From positions 52,186-116,185 of IMG/VR virus record IMGVR_UViG_3300009149_000014: a DNA stretch of 64,000 bases; one strand, 5' to 3'. Position numbers and translations under genes: made by a program. This document shows, in pieces, positions 2,450 through 15,091 of this stretch. Each line of letters opens with the position of its first letter. The first letter of the stretch is position 1. This DNA comes from a virus. The notes under the pieces were generated by a model, which saw only the letters and a program-made list of their open reading frames with translations, did not search any database and was not told the DNA's origin.

Positions 2450-2485
2450 GGGGCGTGATTCTCGGTGGAATCACGCCCCATTTTT
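2450..2485 (+). terminator. Strong rho-independent terminator
   Basis: A perfect 12-bp stem, GGGGCGTGATTC and GAATCACGCCCC, encloses a 6-nt loop and is followed by ATTTTTAT. It is the second of two tandem terminators after the sheath gene, which would insulate that highly expressed gene from the next operon. Confidence 0.85.
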
Positions 2486-2533
2486 ATAGCCCCGTCCCCA
2501 AAGATACTTTGTCTTATCTCGGGGGATAATACC

Positions 2534-3028
2534 ATGAGTGATCTTTTTATGACTGTGGAGTCTTTGGACTCCAAACATCGGGAAAAGTTCGTTCCGATTC
2601 TTCGATCTTGCATTGATGAGACCAAGGTTGACCTTGAGGAAAGCATTCCTCATTATTTGTATAATCTTGGTCAGAACGCTGGGATAATGGGATTTAACAT
2701 TTACGGCGATCCTATTGCATATGTCTTGTATAATAAGACGCAAAATCATCCTATTCTTTTGATGCATTTTTGGGTTCATCCGAGATACAGACGGCAGAAA
2801 GTGGGGGCAAGAATGCTTGCTCATATTAGTCGTACTGAAAAACCCAGTTTGATTATGACGATTTTGAATGAAACATTGGTGACGGCTCAATTGTTTTTGA
2901 GATCTTTGGGATTCTTTTGCACGCAAATTATACGTAGTAGCGAATTTACTAATGATCAATATCGTTTCGTTGCGAATGTTTACAATCCCATGAACAGATT
3001 AGCGGTTTATAATCCGCAGATGTTCTAA
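2534..3028 (+). CDS. GNAT-like N-acetyltransferase
   Basis: A 164-residue protein. The ATG at 2534 is chosen over an upstream in-frame codon at 2465 because that one lies inside the terminator, and a GGGGGA element precedes 2534. The core segment (about residues 73-100, HFWVHPRYRRQKVGARMLAH) matches the acetyl-CoA-binding loop pattern of GNAT enzymes (V-x-P-x-Y-R-x-x-x-x-G-x-x-L). The following ILNETLVTAQLFLRSLGF fits GNAT strands and helices near the C-terminal substrate site. Substrate unknown: it could modify a phage structural protein or a host protein. Its position between sheath and tube genes is unusual for T4-like phages. Confidence 0.6.
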   Translation: MSDLFMTVESLDSKHREKFVPILRSCIDETKVDLEESIPHYLYNLGQNAGIMGFNIYGDPIAYVLYNKTQNHPILLMHFWVHPRYRRQKVGARMLAHISRTEKPSLIMTILNETLVTAQLFLRSLGFFCTQIIRSSEFTNDQYRFVANVYNPMNRLAVYNPQMF

Positions 3029-3072: not shown

Positions 3073-3669
3073 ATGCCTGGCTTCAATGTTGCACCTTTTG
3101 GTGGTTCACTTCCTGGTGGCCCCTCGAATAATATCGAAACACGTCGCCAAAACCGTTGGGTTTTCGAATCCTTGGGTAGAGGTGCAAGTGCCTGGACTAA
3201 CACTGAGTTGTTGCTCCTCGAATCGGCTTCTCGACCGAAATTCGAGTTCGAAGAAGTCGAGATGCACCACAACCAAGAAACTGCATACTTCGCTGGTAAG
3301 CACAAGTTCCAGCCAGTGAAAATGCGATGGTATGATGCCGAGCAAGATCCTGACATTTCGAAGGGTGTCTACCACTGGATTGAAACCGTGCTAGATATTG
3401 GTGACCAGCTGGTCGCCCACCCACGTTTTTACAAGCGTGAAGCTTCTTTGCGGATGTTGGATGGTACTGGTCAACCAAACGAAGTCTGGTCAATGATGGG
3501 CTGCTGGCCTAAAGATTGTGACTGGGGCGATTTGGATTACACCTCTTCCAAGATCTGTATGATCGAATGCACAATGCGTTATGACCGTGCGGTTCGACAA
3601 TTCTTGGACGGAAGCTGCCCAACTCCAATTGCACCACAACCAATCACGCCAAGCTGCCCAGTCGTTTAA
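3073..3669 (+). CDS. Tail tube protein (gp19-like), paralogue 1
   Basis: A 198-residue protein with start motif MPGFNV and a GAGGA ribosome site upstream. The KFEFEEVEMHHNQETAYFAG and VKMRWYDAE segments match the pattern of T4 gp19-type tube subunits, where a beta-sandwich packs into hexameric rings. It is the first of three consecutive MPGF genes between the sheath and the tail chaperone, the normal place for the tube. It is the best candidate for the main tube subunit because it stands first and has the best ribosome site. The Pro- and Cys-containing tail (CPTPIAPQPITPSCPVV) is not shared by the others. Confidence 0.75.
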   Translation: MPGFNVAPFGGSLPGGPSNNIETRRQNRWVFESLGRGASAWTNTELLLLESASRPKFEFEEVEMHHNQETAYFAGKHKFQPVKMRWYDAEQDPDISKGVYHWIETVLDIGDQLVAHPRFYKREASLRMLDGTGQPNEVWSMMGCWPKDCDWGDLDYTSSKICMIECTMRYDRAVRQFLDGSCPTPIAPQPITPSCPVV

Positions 3670-3684
3670 TAACACTGGTGGTTT

Positions 3685-4296
3685 ATGCCTGGATTTAATG
3701 TTGGTCACTTTTTTGGTGAATGCGAAGATGGTGCACCGGGACTTAACGGTGCACCATCAATTGTTCCCAATGTTACTGAAACAGCTCGTAGACATCGTTA
3801 CGAGCTGATTTTAAGCTCATTGCCCGGTAATCGTGCTGCAGATAGTATTTTCTTTCCCCTGATAGTTCCCTTGGCTTGTGAATCTCTCGACAGGCCAACG
3901 ATGCGTATTCAAAAAGAAAGAGTGTGGAATGGAGCAGACTATGCTAACGTTCCACTTCGAGGCGAATACGATCCTATTAATGTGACTCTTTATGAAGTTC
4001 TCCGTGATGATGACAGTGCTCCAATTGCGAATTGGACATTAGAATCAGTTCTTTCATGGTGGACAAACAGCTCATTTAGTGTTATCCATTCCCGCCCTGG
4101 GTTTGCTACTTCTCGTCGAGTTACCGCTACTATCAAAATGTTGAATGGTCTTGGTAATCCGATCTGGGCATATAGATTGCATCGTTGCTGGCCGGAAGTT
4201 ATCAGTCCGGATTCTCTGACATACAAAAATTCAGAAATAGCAACAGTCGCACTCACTTTGAATTTCGACAAAGTGGAAGAAGCAATCGATTTATAG
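3685..4296 (+). CDS. Tail tube-like protein (gp19 family), paralogue 2
   Basis: A 203-residue protein starting 15 nt after paralogue 1, with the same MPGFNVG opening. It shares the layout of the neighbours: an N-terminal loop, a strand pair around residues 80-110, and a late LNGLGNPIWAYRLHRCWP segment that parallels LDGTGQPNEVWSMMGCWP of paralogue 1. No strong Shine-Dalgarno precedes it, so translation may be coupled. It might form a special ring at the tip or neck of the tube, or mix into the tube. The role is inferred from homology and order. Confidence 0.6.
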   Translation: MPGFNVGHFFGECEDGAPGLNGAPSIVPNVTETARRHRYELILSSLPGNRAADSIFFPLIVPLACESLDRPTMRIQKERVWNGADYANVPLRGEYDPINVTLYEVLRDDDSAPIANWTLESVLSWWTNSSFSVIHSRPGFATSRRVTATIKMLNGLGNPIWAYRLHRCWPEVISPDSLTYKNSEIATVALTLNFDKVEEAIDL

Positions 4297-4304
4297 GTAA
4301 CATA

Positions 4305-4883
4305 ATGCCCGGATTTATTATTAATCAATTGGGTGGTAACAATGGCGGGTTCTCTCCAGAACAACGTTACTATGCCTCATTTTCATGGGAGATTGTTGAT
4401 ATTAGTAACAAGCTTCCCACTTTTGCTCGATTTCTGAATAATACCCTACTTCTTCGCACTGCTACTCTCCCTCACGTTACCTTTCAAAAAATCGAAACAG
4501 AAGGAGGGACAATTAAATACAAGTTCGCTGGTAAACCCGCTTACGAAGATGTTCGAATTTCATGGTACGACACTGAAAATTTAGCAACCGTCTATAAAGA
4601 ATGGTATAATATCATTTATACCAATGATCTCGGCATTCAAGCTCCAAATGCATATAAAGGTGACGCTGTTCTGCGTAAATACTTATCGGACAGACCTGAT
4701 AGTCAAGCCAGTCCGGTTACAGAACCAGCCTCCCAACCTAGTGGTACAGTAAGATATCAATTGTTTGGGTCGTGGCCTACGTCATTTAAGGAAAGTGAAC
4801 TCACCTACCTTGAAGCGTCCATAAAAAGTGTCGAAGTTACCCTAACATACGATTATTTCGAATCGGAAATAACAGATGCCTAA
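4305..4883 (+). CDS. Tail tube-like protein (gp19 family), paralogue 3
   Basis: A 192-residue protein. The ATG at 4305 is chosen because it restores the MPGF opening of the two upstream paralogues; the longer frame from 4185 would read through the end of the previous gene. It contains the family features TLPHVTFQKIE, KYKFAGKPAYEDVRISWYDT and, near the end, RYQLFGSWPTSFKESELTYL. It overlaps the next gene by eight bases. Like paralogue 2 it could be a tube-initiating or tube-terminating ring, as T4 uses gp54 and gp3 at the tube ends. That is inference. Confidence 0.65.
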   Translation: MPGFIINQLGGNNGGFSPEQRYYASFSWEIVDISNKLPTFARFLNNTLLLRTATLPHVTFQKIETEGGTIKYKFAGKPAYEDVRISWYDTENLATVYKEWYNIIYTNDLGIQAPNAYKGDAVLRKYLSDRPDSQASPVTEPASQPSGTVRYQLFGSWPTSFKESELTYLEASIKSVEVTLTYDYFESEITDA

Positions 4884-5922
4884 CGAAGAACGCGAAATCG
4901 ATTTGGAAGGAAATAACACTCCAGCCAAATCTTCCCCTAACCCAGCCAACGAGAAAACTGTTCACGTTGACGAAAAAGAACAACTGAATCCGCAAATTGC
5001 CGCACTTGGCAAAGACATGACGGACGACGAGTTCTTGTATGCGATTGCCAATGCTCCGGATGAAATGCTCATCCCTTGGGAAGAAGTTCCAATCCCAAGT
5101 GGCGGTCTTTATTACGAAGGTTGGACAAATGGCACAGTTCGCGTTCGTGCTATGACACAAAGTGTCGAAAAAGCCTTTGCCAACCGACGATTAGTCCAAA
5201 GTGGTGGAGCAATCGATAAAATGTTCAACACCTGTGCAGAACTCCCAGGTGCAATGGACCCCCAACAATTGTTGATTGGTGATCGAACATTTTTGTTGTA
5301 CTATATTCGCGGTTTGACCTACGGTAATTTGTACAAGTTCGTTGTGACTTGTCCTCATTGCAAAGCTGAATCAAGCCACGTTTACGACATGAATGAGCTT
5401 TACTCAACTGTCATTCCGGCAAATCAACAGATTGGCAACGAACCGTTCAAAGTCATTTTACCTCATTTGTCAGCCATTAGTGGTCGTGAAATCTGGGTTG
5501 GTGTACGATTCTTACGCCAAGCAGATATCACAAACATCATGGCTTCACGTCGATTCAATAAGCGACTCGAAGGAAATAGTGTTCGAGCCGGTAATGTTCG
5601 AAATCGTGGACGTCGAGGCCAAGCACCTCAATCTGGCGTTGATGAACAGCAATCACAAGCAGACATGCTACTAGACGGTTCGGTCGAAAAGACCATTGTT
5701 TCCGTCAATGGTAATCGCGAACCAGCTTTAATCCAGCAAATCGTTTCACGGCTGCATTCTCGTGATAATGCGGCCATCCGGGACTTCCTGATGGAGAATA
5801 CCCCCGGAATCGATACTACCGTCAATGTAACATGTCCGGAGTGCAGTAATGAGGCAATGATGGAATTGCCCATTACTGACGGGTTTTTTCGTTCGGCTGA
5901 GCGATCAGGAACTAGAAAATAG
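4876..5922 (+). CDS. Tail assembly chaperone / gp26-like baseplate protein
   Basis: A 348-residue protein starting inside the end of the third tube gene. The segment GDRTFLLYYIRGLTYGNLYK (about residues 136-155) followed by a CPHC knuckle, and a second CPEC knuckle near residue 319, resemble the T4 gp26 (T4_baseplate) family, which carries a zinc ribbon. A polar insertion rich in Arg, Gln and Ser lies around residues 235-265. It sits exactly between tube and tape-measure genes, where long-tailed phages place their tail assembly chaperone, and its end carries a probable shift site that would append a second domain. It should act during tail assembly. Confidence 0.6.
   Translation: MPNEEREIDLEGNNTPAKSSPNPANEKTVHVDEKEQLNPQIAALGKDMTDDEFLYAIANAPDEMLIPWEEVPIPSGGLYYEGWTNGTVRVRAMTQSVEKAFANRRLVQSGGAIDKMFNTCAELPGAMDPQQLLIGDRTFLLYYIRGLTYGNLYKFVVTCPHCKAESSHVYDMNELYSTVIPANQQIGNEPFKVILPHLSAISGREIWVGVRFLRQADITNIMASRRFNKRLEGNSVRAGNVRNRGRRGQAPQSGVDEQQSQADMLLDGSVEKTIVSVNGNREPALIQQIVSRLHSRDNAAIRDFLMENTPGIDTTVNVTCPECSNEAMMELPITDGFFRSAERSGTRK
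5881..5890 (+). other. Candidate programmed frameshift site (+1 or -2)
   Basis: The sequence GGGTTTTTTC is read GGG TTT TTT CGT in the upstream frame. A tRNA-Phe on the second TTT can re-pair with TTC one base downstream, entering a frame that stays open to 6112. A -2 shift would reach the same frame. The downstream frame has no ATG or GTG and only a late TTG, so a frameshift is the simplest way to express it. Confidence 0.55.
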
Positions 5923-6112
5923 ATACGAATCGCTCTTAGAAGAACAGTATCTATTGAAAAAACACGCTAATCTTTCATTGTTCGAACAAGAACAGATCCC
6001 AGCTGAAGATCGCCGATGGTGGCTCGAAAGGATCAAAAAAGACAACGAAGAAGCAGAAAACCAATCTCGACGAGCCCAAGGCCCATCGAGAGCACCCGGT
6101 AGCCGTTCCTAA
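5888..6112 (+). CDS. Frameshift-encoded C-terminal extension of the tail chaperone
   Basis: About 74 codons in the +1 frame relative to the gp26-like gene, open from 5861 after a TGA. The peptide is charged and helical (YLLKKHANLSLFEQEQ, then IPAEDRRWWLERIKK), a pattern like the short proteins with a P-x-x-x-R-x-W motif that accompany tail chaperones in other myophages. There is no plausible start codon or ribosome site, so it is annotated as an extension made by frameshifting, analogous to the G/GT pair of lambda or gp41/42 of Mu. Coding character is strong; the mechanism is inferred. Confidence 0.6.
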   Translation, partial: FVRLSDQELENRYESLLEEQYLLKKHANLSLFEQEQIPAEDRRWWLERIKKDNEEAENQSRRAQGPSRAPGSRS

Positions 6113-7104: not shown

Positions 7105-8232
7105 ATGAAGTATAAAATCCCGCCCGATAAAATTCGCAAATGGATCGAGGCGAACTTTGATTATAAAGTTCGCAAAAGCGGACGTGAATATCTAATTTGC
7201 AATCCCCTGTATGACACTGATAAAAAACGATTCAATATCAACATTGAAACGGGGGGTTGCCACGATTGGAACGGCGACGAATGGGCCGGTGATCCTAATC
7301 CCAAAACCGGCAAACGCCCTTGCCATATTGTTCGTTTTGTTCAACTTTATCGCGGTGTAAGCTTCCGCGATGCTCTCCGTGAACTCATCGGCGACGGAGC
7401 CCTGATACACGCTTATCAGCGTTCAGAGCCCGCCGAAGTCAAAGAAGACACCACGGAGACCATGGCGATTCAGATTCCGAAGGGCTTTAAGCCCCTCGAT
7501 AATCCGGATTCCCTCATGAAACGGCCTCTATGGAATTATCTTCTGTACAGAGGATACACACCAGAAGAAATAATTGAACAAAATATCCACTATCGTGGTT
7601 CTGATATTCTATGGCTTTATACCGAGTTCGGCGAATTGGTTTATATGCAAAGTCGGAACATCTATACCAAAAGGTTCTGGTTCCCTTCGACTGATGTTCT
7701 GGATGATCAAAATGAGAAGATCGGAGAATTAGAAGTCACTCGGGACCACGTGTTGTACGGCTTTGATGAAATCCCCAGAGCCGAATATATTATCCTCACG
7801 GAATCGATTTTCGACAAAAACACTCTCGGTATACACACTCTTGGTACTGGTGGAGTTATTCTGTCTGAAGGACAATTGAAGAGAATTAAGCTTATTGGCC
7901 CCAAACAGGGGATAGTATTAGCTCCCGATAATGACAAACCAGCCATCGAAAGTATTCTTACTAATGCTCCTCGATTGGCAAATATGGGGTATAAAGTCTT
8001 TTTCTCTATTCCTCCTAGTCTTCCCTACACCAACGCTAAAGGTGAAGAGGAATTTACGAAGGATTGGAATGAGATGTTGACGGGATTAAAATTAACGAGA
8101 CCCCAGATCGTTGAAACAATGAATCAGAGATTGGTTCCTTTCAACGAAATAACCAGGCTCCGATTGAGACAATTATTGGTATCGGATAAAAAGGCACTTA
8201 ACAATGGCAAATCAAGATCATTCCTCGCCTAA
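7105..8232 (+). CDS. DnaG-like primase fragment: zinc-finger-like domain plus TOPRIM
   Basis: A 375-residue protein. Residues 25-95 look like a degenerate DnaG zinc-binding domain: YLICNP, KRFNINIETGGCHDW, then CHIVRFVQLYRGVSF. The second half has a TOPRIM fold: IILTESIFDKNTLG carries the catalytic-type Glu, GTGGVILSEGQLKRI follows, and APDNDKPA carries the Asp-x-Asp motif that binds metal. The RNA polymerase core and helicase-binding part of a full primase are not obvious. It might prime phage replication or act on nucleic acid in another way. Lying between structural genes is unusual. A second TOPRIM protein is at 47042-47920. The 3' end overlaps the next gene by 29 bases. Confidence 0.65.
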   Translation: MKYKIPPDKIRKWIEANFDYKVRKSGREYLICNPLYDTDKKRFNINIETGGCHDWNGDEWAGDPNPKTGKRPCHIVRFVQLYRGVSFRDALRELIGDGALIHAYQRSEPAEVKEDTTETMAIQIPKGFKPLDNPDSLMKRPLWNYLLYRGYTPEEIIEQNIHYRGSDILWLYTEFGELVYMQSRNIYTKRFWFPSTDVLDDQNEKIGELEVTRDHVLYGFDEIPRAEYIILTESIFDKNTLGIHTLGTGGVILSEGQLKRIKLIGPKQGIVLAPDNDKPAIESILTNAPRLANMGYKVFFSIPPSLPYTNAKGEEEFTKDWNEMLTGLKLTRPQIVETMNQRLVPFNEITRLRLRQLLVSDKKALNNGKSRSFLA

Positions 8233-8828: not shown

Positions 8829-8873
8829 GATGGAGTCTTTTTCCATTGATTGTTAGCTTACTGGTACTTCTCT

Positions 8874-11800
8874 ATGGCGTTCGATCCGAATCTCTACGCT
8901 ATTCAAATTGCATTGAGCATTGACGCTGGTGAAGCGTTTAAGACTGTCAGTGATTTGGAAGGAAGAGTAAACAGTATCGAGGATGCCTTCTCAAAGGCAA
9001 TGACTCAGACTTTGGGTCATGTGGCTACTGTTACTAGTGAGATTAATTCTCAGCTAGAAGGTATGACCGGACTTGTTACCGATATTAATGCTCAATATGC
9101 TGTTCAATTCGATCAGATAAGTGATACCTTAAATCGCGAATTGGAGCAAGTTAACAATATCGAACGAATCCAAGAAATCGAAGAAGAGCTATATGATCTT
9201 CGTCAAGAAATGTTCGAGAGTCTACAAGAATTCCGACTTATCAATGAACAATTGGTCGTTCTTTTTGAGAATCAACGAGTAACAACAACTGGTCTGAGCG
9301 ATGTTTATGATGAAATGCTTGATCAGTTAGAAGAAATGGGTGTTGATACTGATAACATCCGTAAATCTCTTGCAGGTTCAATTAATCAAGCGAGAGCATT
9401 TCGCACAGAATTCCAAGATATTCTACGAACGATTCAGCAATCCGCCACTGCGATGTATGCGAATGCAACAGCTATGGCTGAGATTACTAAGATGACCGAA
9501 AGATTCGTTACGGCGAATTATCGGGCATATGGCACACAACATCAACTTATGGAAGCTGTGACTGATACAGCTTCTGAATTTGGTGTTTTGCATGACGCAA
9601 CAGCTGAAGCATATGAACAATTAATGGGTATTAGAGTTCCAATCGAATTGTTGGAACAATATGCCGGAATGGTCACTCAAACGTCTCGAATTTCAGGTGC
9701 TGGAACCCGCCAACTAGCAGACTATACTCGGACAATGGCAGGTAGCGGTCTAGAAGCTGGTGATACAGCTTACGTTTTATCCACATTGACGGCGGCTCAA
9801 GAACAATTCGGATTGACCACCGATGAAGTAAACAAGATCCTTGCTGAGAATCTTGAAAAACTGGGTATGATGACTACTATTTATGGTAGTGATATTCCTA
9901 GAGATATGGCAATCGCACAAGCGGCTTTTGCTGGACTTATCAAACAAACTGGAGCAAGTGCACAAGCTGGCAATAAGCTTAACGAAATGTTGTACGCTAC
10001 GGGTCAAGAAGCCATTATTTTAAGGGCCAAACTTGGTGCTGCATTTAATGATGATACTGCCAGTCGATTTGATGTCATCAATGATAAATTTGGCGATATG
10101 GGCAAACAACTTTATGAAGCTCAAGTAAGATCGAAACAAACTGGTGAATCAATCGATGGTCTTGTAATTGCTCTCGGTGCTCAAGCTAAAGCAATGGGTG
10201 GTAGTTATGAAATGGTCGATATGTATGCTAGAGCCATTAGAGATGCTGGTGGTGACTTAAACGCTGCTGTCAAACCATTTGCTGAATATGAACGCCAAAT
10301 TGGTGCAGCTCAAGACCGGCAACGCCAATTCACACAAAGCATTAACACTCTCTATTTCTCTGTTCAAAGTCTAACGGCTTCATTGTTTGCTTTGGTGCAA
10401 CCAGTTATCCAATTTATCGCCAGAGGGATGATTCCTCTGATTCAGATCGCCACATTTGTTGTCGACTCTTTCGTCAGCATCATTGACGTCTTCACAGGAA
10501 CTTGGACAGCCTTAGAAGGTCTCATTCCACCATTGGCTTGGGTCCGCCAAGGTTTAGAAATGTTGGTCGCGGCTGGAATTCTTCTTGGTCCAGTAATCGG
10601 CGGTCTGATCGGATTGTTCTCCGCTGCTGCTGGTATGGTAGGTTTATTCGCTGGATCATTAGCTGCTATTGGCACGATATTTAGCCAATTTACTGGACTA
10701 GTCCAAGCCGGGCTTGCGAATCTTGGGCAATTGTTTATTTCATTTATGACCACCATCGGTACTGGTCTTGCAAGACTTGGTAGTGCAGTTGCTCCAGTAA
10801 TGTTACCATTATTGGCCTTGGGTGGTGCTCTCTTAATGGTCGGTGCTTCGGCTTACTTGTTCGCTCAAGCTACTGTAATGATCGCTCAAGAAGGTTGGGC
10901 GGCTGTTGGTGTGATGTTCGGACTTGTGGCTGCTATCGGTTTATTAGGACTTGCACTAGTTGGCCTCGGTATGCTTGCTCAAGGGCCTGTTGCATTGGGT
11001 TTGCTTGCTGTTGGTGCTGCTTTACTAATGGTTGGTGGTGCGGTCTATTTGGTTGGTGCTGGAATCGGTTTAGCGGCTAACGGTATGGCAGCACTTGTTG
11101 CAGCTGTGCCACCTGATATTGGTGTTCGATTCGTGAGTTTGGCTGCTGGGCTGACCGCTTTGAGTCTAAGTGCTTGGATTATCACTCCCGGATTGCTTGT
11201 ACTTGGTGTTGGGCTAGCTGCCATTGCTATTCCAGCGTATGTGGCTGGAATCGGTTTGACATCATTAGCATCGGCAATGGAATCATTGCAAGATATTACA
11301 TTCCCAGATATTGGTGGGAAAATGCTCCTGTTCGCTCTCGATCTAGCTGCTGGAGCCTTGATCCTTGGTGCAGCTCTTATCCCATTAACTATTGCTGGTG
11401 CTGGGCTTTACATGTTCGCTCAAGGACTTCAAGCTCTACAGGGGTTTGAGGTTCCAGATCTTGGCGGCAAATTGATTATAATGGCTGGGAGCCTCGTTAT
11501 CGGTGCTTATTTATTAGGAGCTGCTATTGCTCCATTAATAATTGCTGGTGCGGGTCTTTGGGCTTTTGCTCAAGGATTGAAACAGATGCAGGGGCTTGAG
11601 GTTCCTGATATTGGTCCTAAATTGATTGTGATGGCTGGAAGCCTTGCTCTTGGTGCTTATCTTCTTGGTGCTGCTGTTTGGCCTTTAATTATCGCTGGTG
11701 CTGGGCTTTACGCTTTTGCTACTGGTTTGCAACAATTGCAGGGGCTTGAGGTTCCAGATCTTGGTGGTAAGTTAATTGTGATGGCCGGGAGCCTTGCTCT

Positions 11801-12866
11801 TGGTGCTTATCTTCTTGGTGCTGCTGTTGCCCCATTGATTTTGGCAGGGGCTGGGCTTTACATGTTCGCTCAGGGGCTCGAAGCTTTGCAGGGGCTTGAG
11901 GTTCCTGATATTGGTCCTAAATTAATTGTGATGGCTGGAAGTCTTTCTAGTGCTGCGGTGATTTTGGGTCCTGCGGTGATTATGTTATCAGCAGCTGGTG
12001 TGGGTCTTTGGGTGTTCGCTCAAGGATTGAAGCAGTTGCAGGGTCTTGAATTGGAGGGCGTTGGGGACGATATTCTTTCTATTGCGATTGGTGTTGGTGC
12101 TGCCGCTTATATTCTTGGTCCTGCTGCTGGTTTGTTGACTGTTGCTAGTGTTGGGTTGGCTGCTGCTGGTGTTGCTTTGGGTGCTGCTGGTATTTCTATT
12201 ACGGTTGGTGCGATTTCTCTTGGGTTTGCCACTAGTTTCTTGAATTCGGCTATTGATAATCTTGATGAGTCAGCTGATGTAATGGAGAGATTTACTTCTG
12301 CAGCTGAACGGTTTAATGCTTTGAGTTTTAGTGCTTTGAGTGGTAGTGTGAGAGATCTGGGTAATGTGGCTAATAATATGGTTCATTACCTGCGTTCATT
12401 AACTTCAGCTGCTGAAGAAATGAACGATACTCAAATTGATGCAAAGGATCTTGCTGCGAGTATTTCTGAGGCCGCTATTTTGTTAGATGTTGCTGCTCAA
12501 TCGTTGGCTAATCCAACTCGAACTTTAACTACTCAAATCAATGGTATTGTCGAACAAGTAGAACGTTTGATCGCGGCTGAAGCTCAGATTCGAGAAATTG
12601 GTGGTGAGATTTCTGATGTTGTTCAACAGCCTCGTGAAGAGGCTCAACAGCCGAATGAAATGAGAGTTGTCGAAAAAGTCACTGAAGCTGTTAATGCTTT
12701 GGTCGAAGTTAAACAAGACAATAGTGAAATGGTTGCTCTGCTTGCTAGATTAGTCGAGTTGATGGAGAAACAAGCTAATAATCAAAATCGAGAAGGTTTC
12801 TTTCAAAATGAAGCTGGTGAGCAACCAAGCGGCAAGAAATTCCATGAAGCTGGAGTCAAAATGTGA
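8874..12866 (+). CDS. Tail tape measure protein
   Basis: A 1330-residue protein; the ATG at 8874 (MAFDPNLYAIQ) is chosen over a TTG at 8850. Residues 1-500 are largely helical and charged, with coiled-coil stretches (QLVVLFENQRV, ERQIGAAQDRQRQFTQSINT). From about 500 to 1130 it becomes strongly hydrophobic with Gly- and Ala-rich helices. Residues 805-1104 are six tandem 50-residue repeats. The last 200 residues are again polar. It is the longest tail gene and follows the tail chaperone, as expected for the protein that sets tail length and occupies the tube lumen. At roughly 1.5 angstroms per residue it predicts a tail near 200 nm. The hydrophobic part may insert into the host inner membrane during DNA entry. 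Confidence 0.85.
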   Translation: MAFDPNLYAIQIALSIDAGEAFKTVSDLEGRVNSIEDAFSKAMTQTLGHVATVTSEINSQLEGMTGLVTDINAQYAVQFDQISDTLNRELEQVNNIERIQEIEEELYDLRQEMFESLQEFRLINEQLVVLFENQRVTTTGLSDVYDEMLDQLEEMGVDTDNIRKSLAGSINQARAFRTEFQDILRTIQQSATAMYANATAMAEITKMTERFVTANYRAYGTQHQLMEAVTDTASEFGVLHDATAEAYEQLMGIRVPIELLEQYAGMVTQTSRISGAGTRQLADYTRTMAGSGLEAGDTAYVLSTLTAAQEQFGLTTDEVNKILAENLEKLGMMTTIYGSDIPRDMAIAQAAFAGLIKQTGASAQAGNKLNEMLYATGQEAIILRAKLGAAFNDDTASRFDVINDKFGDMGKQLYEAQVRSKQTGESIDGLVIALGAQAKAMGGSYEMVDMYARAIRDAGGDLNAAVKPFAEYERQIGAAQDRQRQFTQSINTLYFSVQSLTASLFALVQPVIQFIARGMIPLIQIATFVVDSFVSIIDVFTGTWTALEGLIPPLAWVRQGLEMLVAAGILLGPVIGGLIGLFSAAAGMVGLFAGSLAAIGTIFSQFTGLVQAGLANLGQLFISFMTTIGTGLARLGSAVAPVMLPLLALGGALLMVGASAYLFAQATVMIAQEGWAAVGVMFGLVAAIGLLGLALVGLGMLAQGPVALGLLAVGAALLMVGGAVYLVGAGIGLAANGMAALVAAVPPDIGVRFVSLAAGLTALSLSAWIITPGLLVLGVGLAAIAIPAYVAGIGLTSLASAMESLQDITFPDIGGKMLLFALDLAAGALILGAALIPLTIAGAGLYMFAQGLQALQGFEVPDLGGKLIIMAGSLVIGAYLLGAAIAPLIIAGAGLWAFAQGLKQMQGLEVPDIGPKLIVMAGSLALGAYLLGAAVWPLIIAGAGLYAFATGLQQLQGLEVPDLGGKLIVMAGSLALGAYLLGAAVAPLILAGAGLYMFAQGLEALQGLEVPDIGPKLIVMAGSLSSAAVILGPAVIMLSAAGVGLWVFAQGLKQLQGLELEGVGDDILSIAIGVGAAAYILGPAAGLLTVASVGLAAAGVALGAAGISITVGAISLGFATSFLNSAIDNLDESADVMERFTSAAERFNALSFSALSGSVRDLGNVANNMVHYLRSLTSAAEEMNDTQIDAKDLAASISEAAILLDVAAQSLANPTRTLTTQINGIVEQVERLIAAEAQIREIGGEISDVVQQPREEAQQPNEMRVVEKVTEAVNALVEVKQDNSEMVALLARLVELMEKQANNQNREGFFQNEAGEQPSGKKFHEAGVKM
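11286..12185 (+). repeat. Six tandem 150-bp repeats in the tape measure gene
   Basis: Each unit encodes 50 residues, typified by LQGLEVPDIGPKLIVMAGSL followed by a Gly/Ala-rich hydrophobic helix and an AGAGLYMFAQGL segment. Units two to five are very similar in DNA; the first and last are diverged. The register is exact at 150 bp with no indels. Confidence 0.9.
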
Positions 12867-13451: not shown

Positions 13452-13769
13452 ATGACTCGATATGATAATGCTCAAAGCGTCTTATACAAGAATTTCGAGA
13501 CAAAGGCTCGATTGCGGGAATATTCGTGGTTGGTTACTAAACCGATCGACACTGATATTTCGTCTTTTAAAGTGAACACTCAGACTGCTGGTGCTCCACG
13601 TCGAATCGCTCAACAAGTGTATGGTGATCATAACTTGTATTGGGTATTAGTGATGTTTAATAACAAATGGTTTGCTGATCCGGGGGCACTGCAGGTCTTG
13701 AATTGGCCTGTGGCGGGGCAAGTGCTGTTCTATCCGAATCGCTATGTAATTATACCAACGTTGTCTTAG
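13452..13769 (+). CDS. Baseplate wedge protein gp53-like
   Basis: A 105-residue protein starting two bases after the previous stop; ATG 13452 is used rather than an upstream in-frame codon. YGDHNLYWVLVMFNN (about residues 58-72) matches the signature of T4 gp53 (Y-G-x-x-x-L-Y-W-V-L-L-x-x-N). The C-terminal segment with VAGQVLFYPNRYVIIPT looks like a LysM-type end. T4 gp53 is about 196 residues, so this is a shorter version. Its stop codon overlaps the stop of the opposite-strand hub-like gene by four bases (TTAG). Confidence 0.7.
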   Translation: MTRYDNAQSVLYKNFETKARLREYSWLVTKPIDTDISSFKVNTQTAGAPRRIAQQVYGDHNLYWVLVMFNNKWFADPGALQVLNWPVAGQVLFYPNRYVIIPTLS

Positions 13770-15091
13770 AGACCAACTGGTACCGCATTTGCGTTTAAAT
13801 CGAGTTTGCTCAATTTCAGAACAGTCGTCCAATTGTTTTCATACCAAGTGTGTTCGAAACCGTAAACCAGCCAATTACCAGACATAAAATAATTCTTTAC
13901 GCCGTCTTTGAAATTGTTGTGCCAATCGACGTAAACATTAACAGCTCCTAAACCAATCGTGCTGTCCCATACGCCGTGTCCTTTGACTTTCAAATCAATA
14001 GTGAACATTTTATAAGCGTGTCGCACATATTCTGTTCGAGCATAAGCATCAAAAAAGTCAATGTATGGGACTTCGATCTCGCCAGCACTAAAGTATTCTG
14101 GTGGACTCTCCACGAATGACCGTCCAAAACGACCTTTTGCATAAGTTGCGTTTTCCGGACGGATCGTGCTACGAAGCACACCAGTCATTGGTTGTTTTGG
14201 TTTCCATTTATTTTCGGTATTGTTTTCACTTACGATTGCTTTATTGGGTCGATTCGTTTGGTCATAAACTTGCCCAAGCGTAGCTGTTACGCCTGCTGTA
14301 ACTAGCCCCATTTCATGATGGCCGAGGCTTGGATTTAGCACAGCTTCCCAATCAATTATATCGCCATAACCGTTCTCATCCATTTTCCGATAATAACCAA
14401 GGGATGATGGCGTGAAAGTCGATATTGGACCAATTTTTACTTCATCATTGAACATTCCAACGGCCCATGGTGTCCCTGACTCGTCCAAAGATGAAGCAAT
14501 ATGTAACCAATGTGATAGCACGTCTCGTGGAGCACGCCTCATCATCCACCATACATTGGCTTTTGAATCTCTTGTTTCAGGCACAGTTAAATTGTATCCT
14601 GATGGAATATACCGTCTCAATAATTGTCTAATTACTTCACTGATGTTTCCTTCGAATCCTCCACCAAATGCGTCCCCAATTCTAAAGAAGAAATTGAGGG
14701 GATCAATAGCCAAGATTTCAACGTAATCAATTTCTCCAGAACCATGTGGATAGATCATGACGATGTACGCTTTGATCGTCCTAGTCTCTTCTCTTGGATA
14801 TCCACGACCACTTCCAGGTTCATACTTAATTTTCAAAGTCAAAGCGATTGGATTGTCACGGATTCTTTCTAACAATCTGTAAGACCCCGTGTTGTCCCCT
14901 TCGAACATCCCGTCTAAAATCGCAAAGTTCGGATTTTTAATCTGAATTCTTATGGCATAACCATTATTAATGAAACCTTTGAAAATGACCTTTTTAATAT
15001 AAGGCCCTAGATCCCCGGCATTCAAATCGGGGATAAAGACTTCCACAGAAGCTCTTTGGCCTGCTATCGGTTTCAAATCAATGTTGGACAT
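13766..15091 (-). CDS. Baseplate hub-like protein (gp27/gpD type) on opposite strand
   Basis: A 441-residue protein on the minus strand within a plus-strand baseplate cluster. The N-terminus (RASVEVFIPDLNAG) and a middle segment (NISEVIRQLLRRYIP, RRAPRDVLSHWLHIA) recall hub proteins that contain two tube-like barrels. The C-terminus (MFTIDLKVKGHGVWD, YFMSGNWLVYGFEHTW) is like the last domain of gpD/gp27-type hubs, which hold the spike. It faces the spike gene at 15339. Its 3' end overlaps the gp53-like stop and its ATG abuts the next plus-strand ATG (CATATG). No clear Shine-Dalgarno is seen. Assignment by pattern and context. Confidence 0.55.
   Translation of the reverse strand: MSNIDLKPIAGQRASVEVFIPDLNAGDLGPYIKKVIFKGFINNGYAIRIQIKNPNFAILDGMFEGDNTGSYRLLERIRDNPIALTLKIKYEPGSGRGYPREETRTIKAYIVMIYPHGSGEIDYVEILAIDPLNFFFRIGDAFGGGFEGNISEVIRQLLRRYIPSGYNLTVPETRDSKANVWWMMRRAPRDVLSHWLHIASSLDESGTPWAVGMFNDEVKIGPISTFTPSSLGYYRKMDENGYGDIIDWEAVLNPSLGHHEMGLVTAGVTATLGQVYDQTNRPNKAIVSENNTENKWKPKQPMTGVLRSTIRPENATYAKGRFGRSFVESPPEYFSAGEIEVPYIDFFDAYARTEYVRHAYKMFTIDLKVKGHGVWDSTIGLGAVNVYVDWHNNFKDGVKNYFMSGNWLVYGFEHTWYENNWTTVLKLSKLDLNANAVPVGL

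What the first reader, a model, noticed from the sequence alone, without database searches (positions are those of the whole stretch)
5861..6112. Probable programmed frameshift in the tail chaperone gene, of +1 or -2 type
A coding frame lacking a usable start overlaps the end of the gp26-like gene in the +1 frame, with GGG TTT TTT CGT at the overlap. tRNA-Phe can move from TTT to TTC. Tail chaperones of many phages use -1 shifts, and Mu uses -2; a +1 or -2 shift in a T4-like gp26 gene would be new to my knowledge and links gp26-like proteins to the G/GT chaperone logic.
Basis: partly seen in the sequence, partly recalled or inferred. Interest (0 to 1): 0.7.

Follow-up and report, generated by a model that had tools for sequence, protein, structure and literature searches.

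The report
Frameshifted tail chaperone in T4-like phages
A phage gene for a tail-building helper protein is read in two ways because ribosomes appear to skip one base near its end; the same gene does this in scores of related uncultivated phages, while more distant relatives step back a base or use two separate genes.

Summary
A T4-gp26-like gene (4876-5922) is overlapped in the +1 frame by an ORF (5861-6112) with no ATG/GTG/TTG before 5954, and GGG TTT TTT CGT lies at the overlap. The arrangement is under selection. Two lineages at about 75% protein identity keep the site and the second frame (pS 1.01, pN 0.12). In a larger related branch, 79 of 80 loci have the +1 extension, against 2 of 223 control ORF ends. 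Interrupted sites there (TTT CTT TGG) and elsewhere (TTC TTT CGT) permit +1 re-pairing but not -2, so +1 is favoured. A cyanophage-type branch has T TTT TTC in 80/80 and a -1 extension in 79/80. T4 gp26 and gp51 both match PF12322 full length; gp51 carries an extra domain.

Best reading: the short product is the chaperone (lambda G/TAC-N) and the +1 product is the long form (GT/TAC-NC). The gp26-chaperone link is prior art (Vladimirov 2022, not readable here), and +1 shifts are predicted in unrelated halovirus chaperones. New here: the family-wide +1 mode, its motif, the switch between -1 and +1, and a conserved hairpin 5 nt upstream of T6 in the window lineage. No protein or reporter evidence exists.

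The parts
4876..5922 (+). gp26-like tail assembly chaperone, short form (G / TAC-N), 348 aa, two CxxC pairs
   Evidence: PF12322 E=1.2e-10, PHROG_150 baseplate hub E=4e-16; lies between tail-tube genes and tape measure
5861..6112 (+). +1-frame extension ORF (T / TAC-C domain); the translated part would begin at about 5888 with FVRLSDQ...
   Evidence: open frame; pS 1.01 / pN 0.12 against L003; bridged by L213 to the extension domain of the larger +1 branch
5881..5892 (+). slip site GGG TTT TTT CGT; tRNA-Phe moves UUU to UUC at 5887-5890
   Evidence: identical GGGTTTTTTCG in L002-L008; equivalent +1-compatible sites in all other +1 relatives
5844..5878 (+). hairpin CAGTAATG-a-GGCAAT-gatgga-ATTGCC-CATTACTG, ending 5 nt before T6; candidate 5' stimulator
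   Evidence: -21.4 kcal/mol for 5840-5892, z -4.6; the 17 codons up to and including the slip Phe codons are base-identical to L003, longest run in the gene, permutation P 0.0016; no covariation available
4876..6109 (+). predicted frameshift fusion (GT / TAC-NC), 411 aa, junction ...TDGFF-VRLSD...
   Evidence: translation with TTTC read as one step; inferred product
4305..4883 (+). third of three tandem tail-tube (gp19) genes upstream
   Evidence: PHROG_45 E=6e-14
8850..12866 (+). tape measure protein, presumed client of the chaperone
   Evidence: PHROG_167 tail length tape measure E=2e-8

Best explanation
The gene is a T4-gp26-type tail assembly chaperone. Most ribosomes stop at 5920 and make the short form. 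A minority slip +1 when tRNA-Phe on UUU (5887-5889) re-pairs with UUC (5888-5890) before CGU is decoded, and make a 411-aa long form with an extra, probably helical, domain. By analogy with lambda gpG/gpGT, the short form would coat the tape measure protein and the long form would recruit tail tube subunits, the ratio being set by slip efficiency. Shown by sequence: the two frames, the site, conservation and coding selection, homology of the extension to others in the family, and gene order. Inferred: that shifting happens, its efficiency, that it is +1 rather than -2, and the chaperone action. In this lineage a hairpin 5 nt upstream of the T run may push the ribosome forward; that step is speculative.
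For: Relatives keep the site and the second frame. Purifying selection acts on the extension. Of 80 related loci, 79 have a +1 extension versus 2/223 control ORF ends, and 21/77 lack any start codon until at least 70 nt past the stop. The site is TTT, then TTT or CTT, then a codon beginning with T, in all 80 once two register-shifted sites (TTT TTT TTC CCT) are counted. SP-15, GXN1, RM378, Mel-JY01, immuto and LR756508 also show +1. Distant homologues reach an extension domain by -1 at T TTT TTC: cyanophage branch 80/80 sites, 79/80 extensions; PA5oct and Atu_ph07 types. The extension domain of the +1 branch matches that of the jumbo -1 phages (hhalign 94%), and the cyanophage one matches the T4 gp51 C-terminus (96%); reversed controls are at most 2%. 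T4 gp26 and gp51 both match PF12322 full length. Gene order is tube - chaperone - tape measure. The best PDB match of the short-form model is the HK97 tail assembly chaperone 2ob9, though only E 0.28, prob 0.72.
Against: No protein, ribosome-profiling or reporter data. CGT is the commonest Arg codon in the window (14.3 per 1000), so a hungry A site is not evident. T6 also permits -2 slippage or RNA polymerase slippage in the window lineage itself. No downstream structure is conserved. The window's own extension has no direct significant match to other extension domains and is tied in only through L213.
Confidence: 0.85

Rival explanations
1. The shift is -2, as in phage Mu: tRNA-Phe slips back two bases on T6, adding one extra Phe (GFFFVRLSD).
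For: TTTTTT permits it in the window and its close relatives; Mu is a precedent in tail chaperones.
Against: Homologous sites TTT CTT TGG (17 loci), TTT CTT TAC (3) and GXN1 TTC TTT CGT give no cognate -2 re-pairing but all allow +1.
Confidence: 0.08
2. Transcriptional slippage: RNA polymerase drops one U (or adds two) in the T6 run, helped by the nascent hairpin 5844-5878, and normal translation of that mRNA gives the long form.
For: A hairpin before a T run resembles the Roseiflexus IS630 case, where a stem loop causes loss of one base (PMC5009743); z -4.6.
Against: The spacer is 5 nt rather than adjacent; T6 is short; homologous sites with interrupted runs (TTTCTTT) and the larger +1 branch lack long run or hairpin.
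Confidence: 0.08
3. The second ORF is a separate gene with its own internal or non-ATG start (CTG 5876 or 5897, TTG 5954) or is made by termination-reinitiation.
For: In the related phage Cygsa01 the extension ORF starts at a TAATG overlap, so the family can do this; L008 has an in-frame ATG.
Against: No ATG/GTG/TTG before 5954; 21/77 relatives have none until at least 70 nt past the stop; CTG 5876 lies at the foot of a roughly -20 kcal hairpin; the stop is about 30 nt after the slip, not at a start.
Confidence: 0.05
4. Assembly or sequencing indel that splits one gene.
For: Homopolymer T6 is error-prone.
Against: The same frame offset occurs in seven close viral contigs from separate IMG/VR records and in isolates SP-15, RM378, GXN1, Mel-JY01 and immuto.
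Confidence: 0.01

Closest known systems
T4 gp26 / gp51 hub assembly chaperones, read as TAC-N / TAC-NC (Vladimirov, Gautam, Davidson 2022, Virology 566:9; title seen, text not held)
   Same: Same PF12322 family; short form plus long form with a C-terminal extension
   Different: T4 encodes the two forms as separate genes; here one gene plus a +1 shift. From memory of the abstract, frameshifting was reported in several T4-like groups; whether +1 was among them could not be checked
lambda gpG / gpGT
   Same: Position between tube and tape measure; overlapping second frame; [quoted passage not shown]
   Different: lambda shifts -1; no sequence kinship was looked for or found here; siphophage
Mu gp41/gp42 (-2 shift)
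   Same: Second ORF lies in the frame reached by +1 or -2
   Different: Mu uses -2; sites in this family favour +1
Halovirus HF1/HF2 and HSTV-2 chaperones (predicted +1 at TTT-CGC; PMC7230728, PMC5009743)
   Same: Contractile-tail chaperone, TTT-CGn, +1
   Different: HF2 proteins hit PHROG_14268/12163, not PHROG_150; a different protein family
Influenza PA-X +1 site UCC_UUU_CGU (PMC3498833)
   Same: P-site UUU slipping to UUC before CGU
   Different: Eukaryotic virus; CGU is not a rare codon in this phage
Pakpunavirus Adele / Andersonviridae chaperone, -1 at GTTTTT (PMC12846349)
   Same: Same logic, same comparative style of evidence
   Different: -1 direction; relation of its TAC-N to PF12322 not tested here

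Membership tests
PF12322 / T4 gp26-gp51 family | Profile match above the curated cut-off | tested here: met
   P0001 41.9 bits versus cut-off 24.5; PHROG_150 E=4e-16
Frameshifted tail assembly chaperones (G/GT type) | Gene between tail tube and tape measure | tested here: met
   Three gp19-like genes upstream, PHROG_167 tape measure downstream, with two ORFs and a primase-like gene between
Frameshifted tail assembly chaperones (G/GT type) | Second ORF overlaps in another frame, conserved, without its own start | tested here: met
Frameshifted tail assembly chaperones (G/GT type) | Fusion product actually made at low ratio | not testable with these tools
   Needs mass spectrometry or reporters
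Frameshifted tail assembly chaperones (G/GT type) | Short form has the chaperone fold | tested here: inconclusive
   AF2 pLDDT 73; best PDB match HK97 chaperone 2ob9, E 0.28, prob 0.72
Frameshifted tail assembly chaperones (G/GT type) | Binds the tape measure, absent from the virion | not testable with these tools
   None
+1 programmed frameshift sites (P-site slippage) | P-site tRNA can re-pair one base downstream | tested here: met
   TTT C in the window, L003, SP-15, GXN1; NTT T in the larger branch, all 80 after register correction
+1 programmed frameshift sites (P-site slippage) | Slow A-site codon (rare or stop) | tested here: not met
   CGT is the commonest Arg codon in the window; the A-site codons in relatives are TGG, TAC, TTC, CAC and CTA, whose usage was not measured. 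This is a common stimulator rather than a strict requirement
Mu-type -2 frameshift | Site allows -2 re-pairing across the family | tested here: not met
   TTT CTT TGG, TTT CTT TAC and TTC TTT CGT do not
Canonical -1 heptamer X XXY YYZ | T TTT TTC with an open -1 frame | tested here: not met
   The window's second frame is +1; the heptamer is met in the cyanophage and jumbo branches

The most novel reading that the evidence does not exclude
A whole clade of T4-like phages makes its long tail chaperone by +1 frameshifting at an undescribed motif (UUU YUU UGG CCU GAC, or UUU UUU CGN), having switched from or to the -1 UUUUUUC site of its relatives, and in the window lineage an upstream hairpin acts as the forward motor.
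Probability: 0.35. Interest if true: 0.65.

Novelty: new variant of a known kind. Interest (0 to 1): 0.5.

Why it matters
One homologous protein family gets its long chaperone form by +1 shifting, -1 shifting, apparent reinitiation or separate genes in different phages. That gives a natural comparison of how ribosome direction is set, and of whether the chaperone ratio rather than the mechanism is what selection keeps. It also corrects annotation: the second domain is recorded as orphan ORFs in SP-15, immuto and Mel-JY01. The +1 motif is easy to test in E. coli reporters and common in uncultivated phages.

Tried and rejected
SP-15 gp26 alone found only itself. A genome-contig scan found no cellular relatives. 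The extension-domain model is poor (pLDDT 61) and was not searched. Conserved downstream RNA structure: none (mean z -0.71 versus control -0.57). The 5891-5950 hairpin of the window (z -3.3) is absent in L003 and was discarded. An upstream hairpin is not general in the larger +1 branch. Rfam gave only sub-threshold chance hits. No intrinsic terminator was called at the hairpin plus T6. HF2 chaperones tested for kinship: a different family. A sequencing error is excluded by independent records.

Full report
OBSERVATION. The gp26-like gene runs 4876-5922. The +1 frame is open from 5861 (after TGA 5858-5860) to TAA 6110-6112, without ATG/GTG/TTG before 5954; GGG TTT TTT CGT lies at 5881-5892. The product matches PF12322 T4_baseplate and PHROG_150 baseplate hub. 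Upstream lie three gp19-type tube genes; downstream, after an unknown ORF, a primase-like gene and another ORF, comes the tape measure gene. The window is the last 64 kb of a 116-kb IMG/VR record.

CLOSE RELATIVES. Seven viral contigs encode the protein: one identical (L002) and six, L003-L008, at 75-76%. All have GGGTTTTTTCG and the same second frame. In that lineage the frame-0 product ends sooner (TGA right after CGA ACG GCT GAC), yet the second frame is kept. Over 54 codons of the extension, window against L003 gives pS 1.01 and pN 0.12, with 32 of 48 base differences at third positions of the +1 frame. The first-reader refuters therefore fail here.

DISTANT RELATIVES, +1. tblastn found PF12322-type homologues in named phages. 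SP-15 (GAA TTT TTT CAC), Streptococcus phage GXN1 (GAA TTC TTT CGT), Mel-JY01 (AAC TTT TTT TGG), immuto (AGC TTT CTT TGG), LR756508 (AAC TTT CTA) and RM378 (TCC TTT TTT TGG) all end frame 0 soon after FF/FL and have a long +1 extension. Of the 80 analysed in this branch (79 of these plus immuto; L054 is truncated), 79 have the +1 extension of at least 190 nt, versus 2 of 223 control ORF ends in the same loci. The sites are TTTTTTTGGCCT 57, TTTCTTTGGCCT 17, TTTCTTTACCCT 3, TTTTTTTACCCT 1, and 2 register-shifted TTT TTT TTC CCT. The first Phe codon is TTT in 80/80, while elsewhere in these genes TTT is 79% of Phe codons. Leu at the second position is always CTT, but double coding also constrains this. 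Pairwise pN/pS in the extension is 0.29. Of 77 loci with closed extensions, 21 have no start codon until at least 70 nt past the stop.

DISTANT RELATIVES, -1 AND OTHERS. PA5oct, PAC2, Atu_ph07, Phosso and LR756511 have the extension in the -1 frame at T TTT TTC. In the cyanophage branch, 80/80 loci have T TTT TTC and 79/80 have a -1 extension; L131 is the exception, and isolate S-SCSM1 is ambiguous. Cygsa01 appears to use a TAATG overlap. T4 gp26 and gp51 both match PF12322 over its whole length, and gp51 carries a C-terminal segment beyond it. The extension domains are kin: +1 branch against jumbo -1 phages hhalign 94%, cyanophage -1 against T4 gp51 C-terminus 96%, +1 branch against cyanophage only 16-28% though collinear, reversed controls at most 2%. 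The window's own extension joins through L213 (35% to the window, tblastn 6e-7; 41% to the +1 branch, 2e-13), itself a GAC TTT TTT TGG CCT +1 site. On a tree of 50 short forms the +1 label needs 2 changes and the -1 label 3, against about 16 in shuffles. Several long branches limit this; LR756511 (-1) sits with SP-15 and GXN1.

DIRECTION. All +1-frame relatives' sites allow the P-site tRNA to re-pair one base on (UUU to UUC, CUU to UUU, UUU to UUU). Interrupted sites do not allow -2. Interrupted runs also speak against transcriptional slippage as the family mechanism, but in the window lineage alone T6 leaves both open. CGT is not rare in the window.

UPSTREAM HAIRPIN. The final 17 codons of the alignment, ending at the slip Phe codons, are base-identical between the window and L003. 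It is the longest such run (next 5), permutation P 0.0016. They form a 14-bp hairpin 5844-5878; the 53-nt stretch folds at -21.4 kcal/mol, z -4.6. A stem loop 4 nt 5' of a shift site has been reported to damp -1 and stimulate +1 in constructs, and a 5' stem loop acts as a motor in T4 gene 60 bypassing (review PMC5009743). With only two lineages and no covariation, this remains a hypothesis; a hairpin before a T run also resembles stem-loop-stimulated transcriptional slippage.

PRIOR ART. The G-T frameshift was described as conserved except in T4 (PMC5009743). Vladimirov et al. [quoted passage not shown] text not held; from memory, gp26 and gp51 were named as short and long form and frameshifting was found in several T4-like groups). 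PRFect counted 350 forward slippery-site cases in its annotated actinophage training set, which is mostly tail chaperone genes, and halovirus chaperones are predicted to shift +1 at TTT-CGn, but HF2's is another protein family. I found no report of +1 shifting in the gp26 family in the held library, which lacks most subscription journals.

VERDICT. Real, selected, most likely a +1 programmed ribosomal frameshift making the long form of a T4-gp26-type tail assembly chaperone; a new variant of a known kind. Untested by experiment.

Noticed in passing
window 3073-4883: Three tandem, diverged tail-tube (gp19-like) genes directly before the chaperone.
   Followed up: partly
window 7105-8232: A DNA primase-like gene (PHROG_47) sits inside the tail module between chaperone and tape measure.
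   Followed up: partly
window 13766-15091: A 441-aa ORF on the opposite strand, without a PHROG match, inside the tail module.
   Followed up: partly
window 2465-3028: Acetyltransferase-like gene (PHROG_1249) within the structural module.
   Followed up: no
L009:2306-2425, L018:2336-2446, L013:2237-2473: Annotated orphan ORFs in SP-15, immuto and Mel-JY01 appear to be parts of the frameshift extension.
   Followed up: partly
L131:2214-2257; L110:1887-2074: Two cyanophage-type exceptions: slip heptamer kept but the -1 frame closes (L131); extension in the +1 frame with its own ATG (S-SCSM1).
   Followed up: partly
L112:1800-1812: In Pseudomonas phage Cygsa01 the extension ORF starts at a TAATG overlap with gp26, suggesting reinitiation instead of frameshifting.
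   Followed up: no
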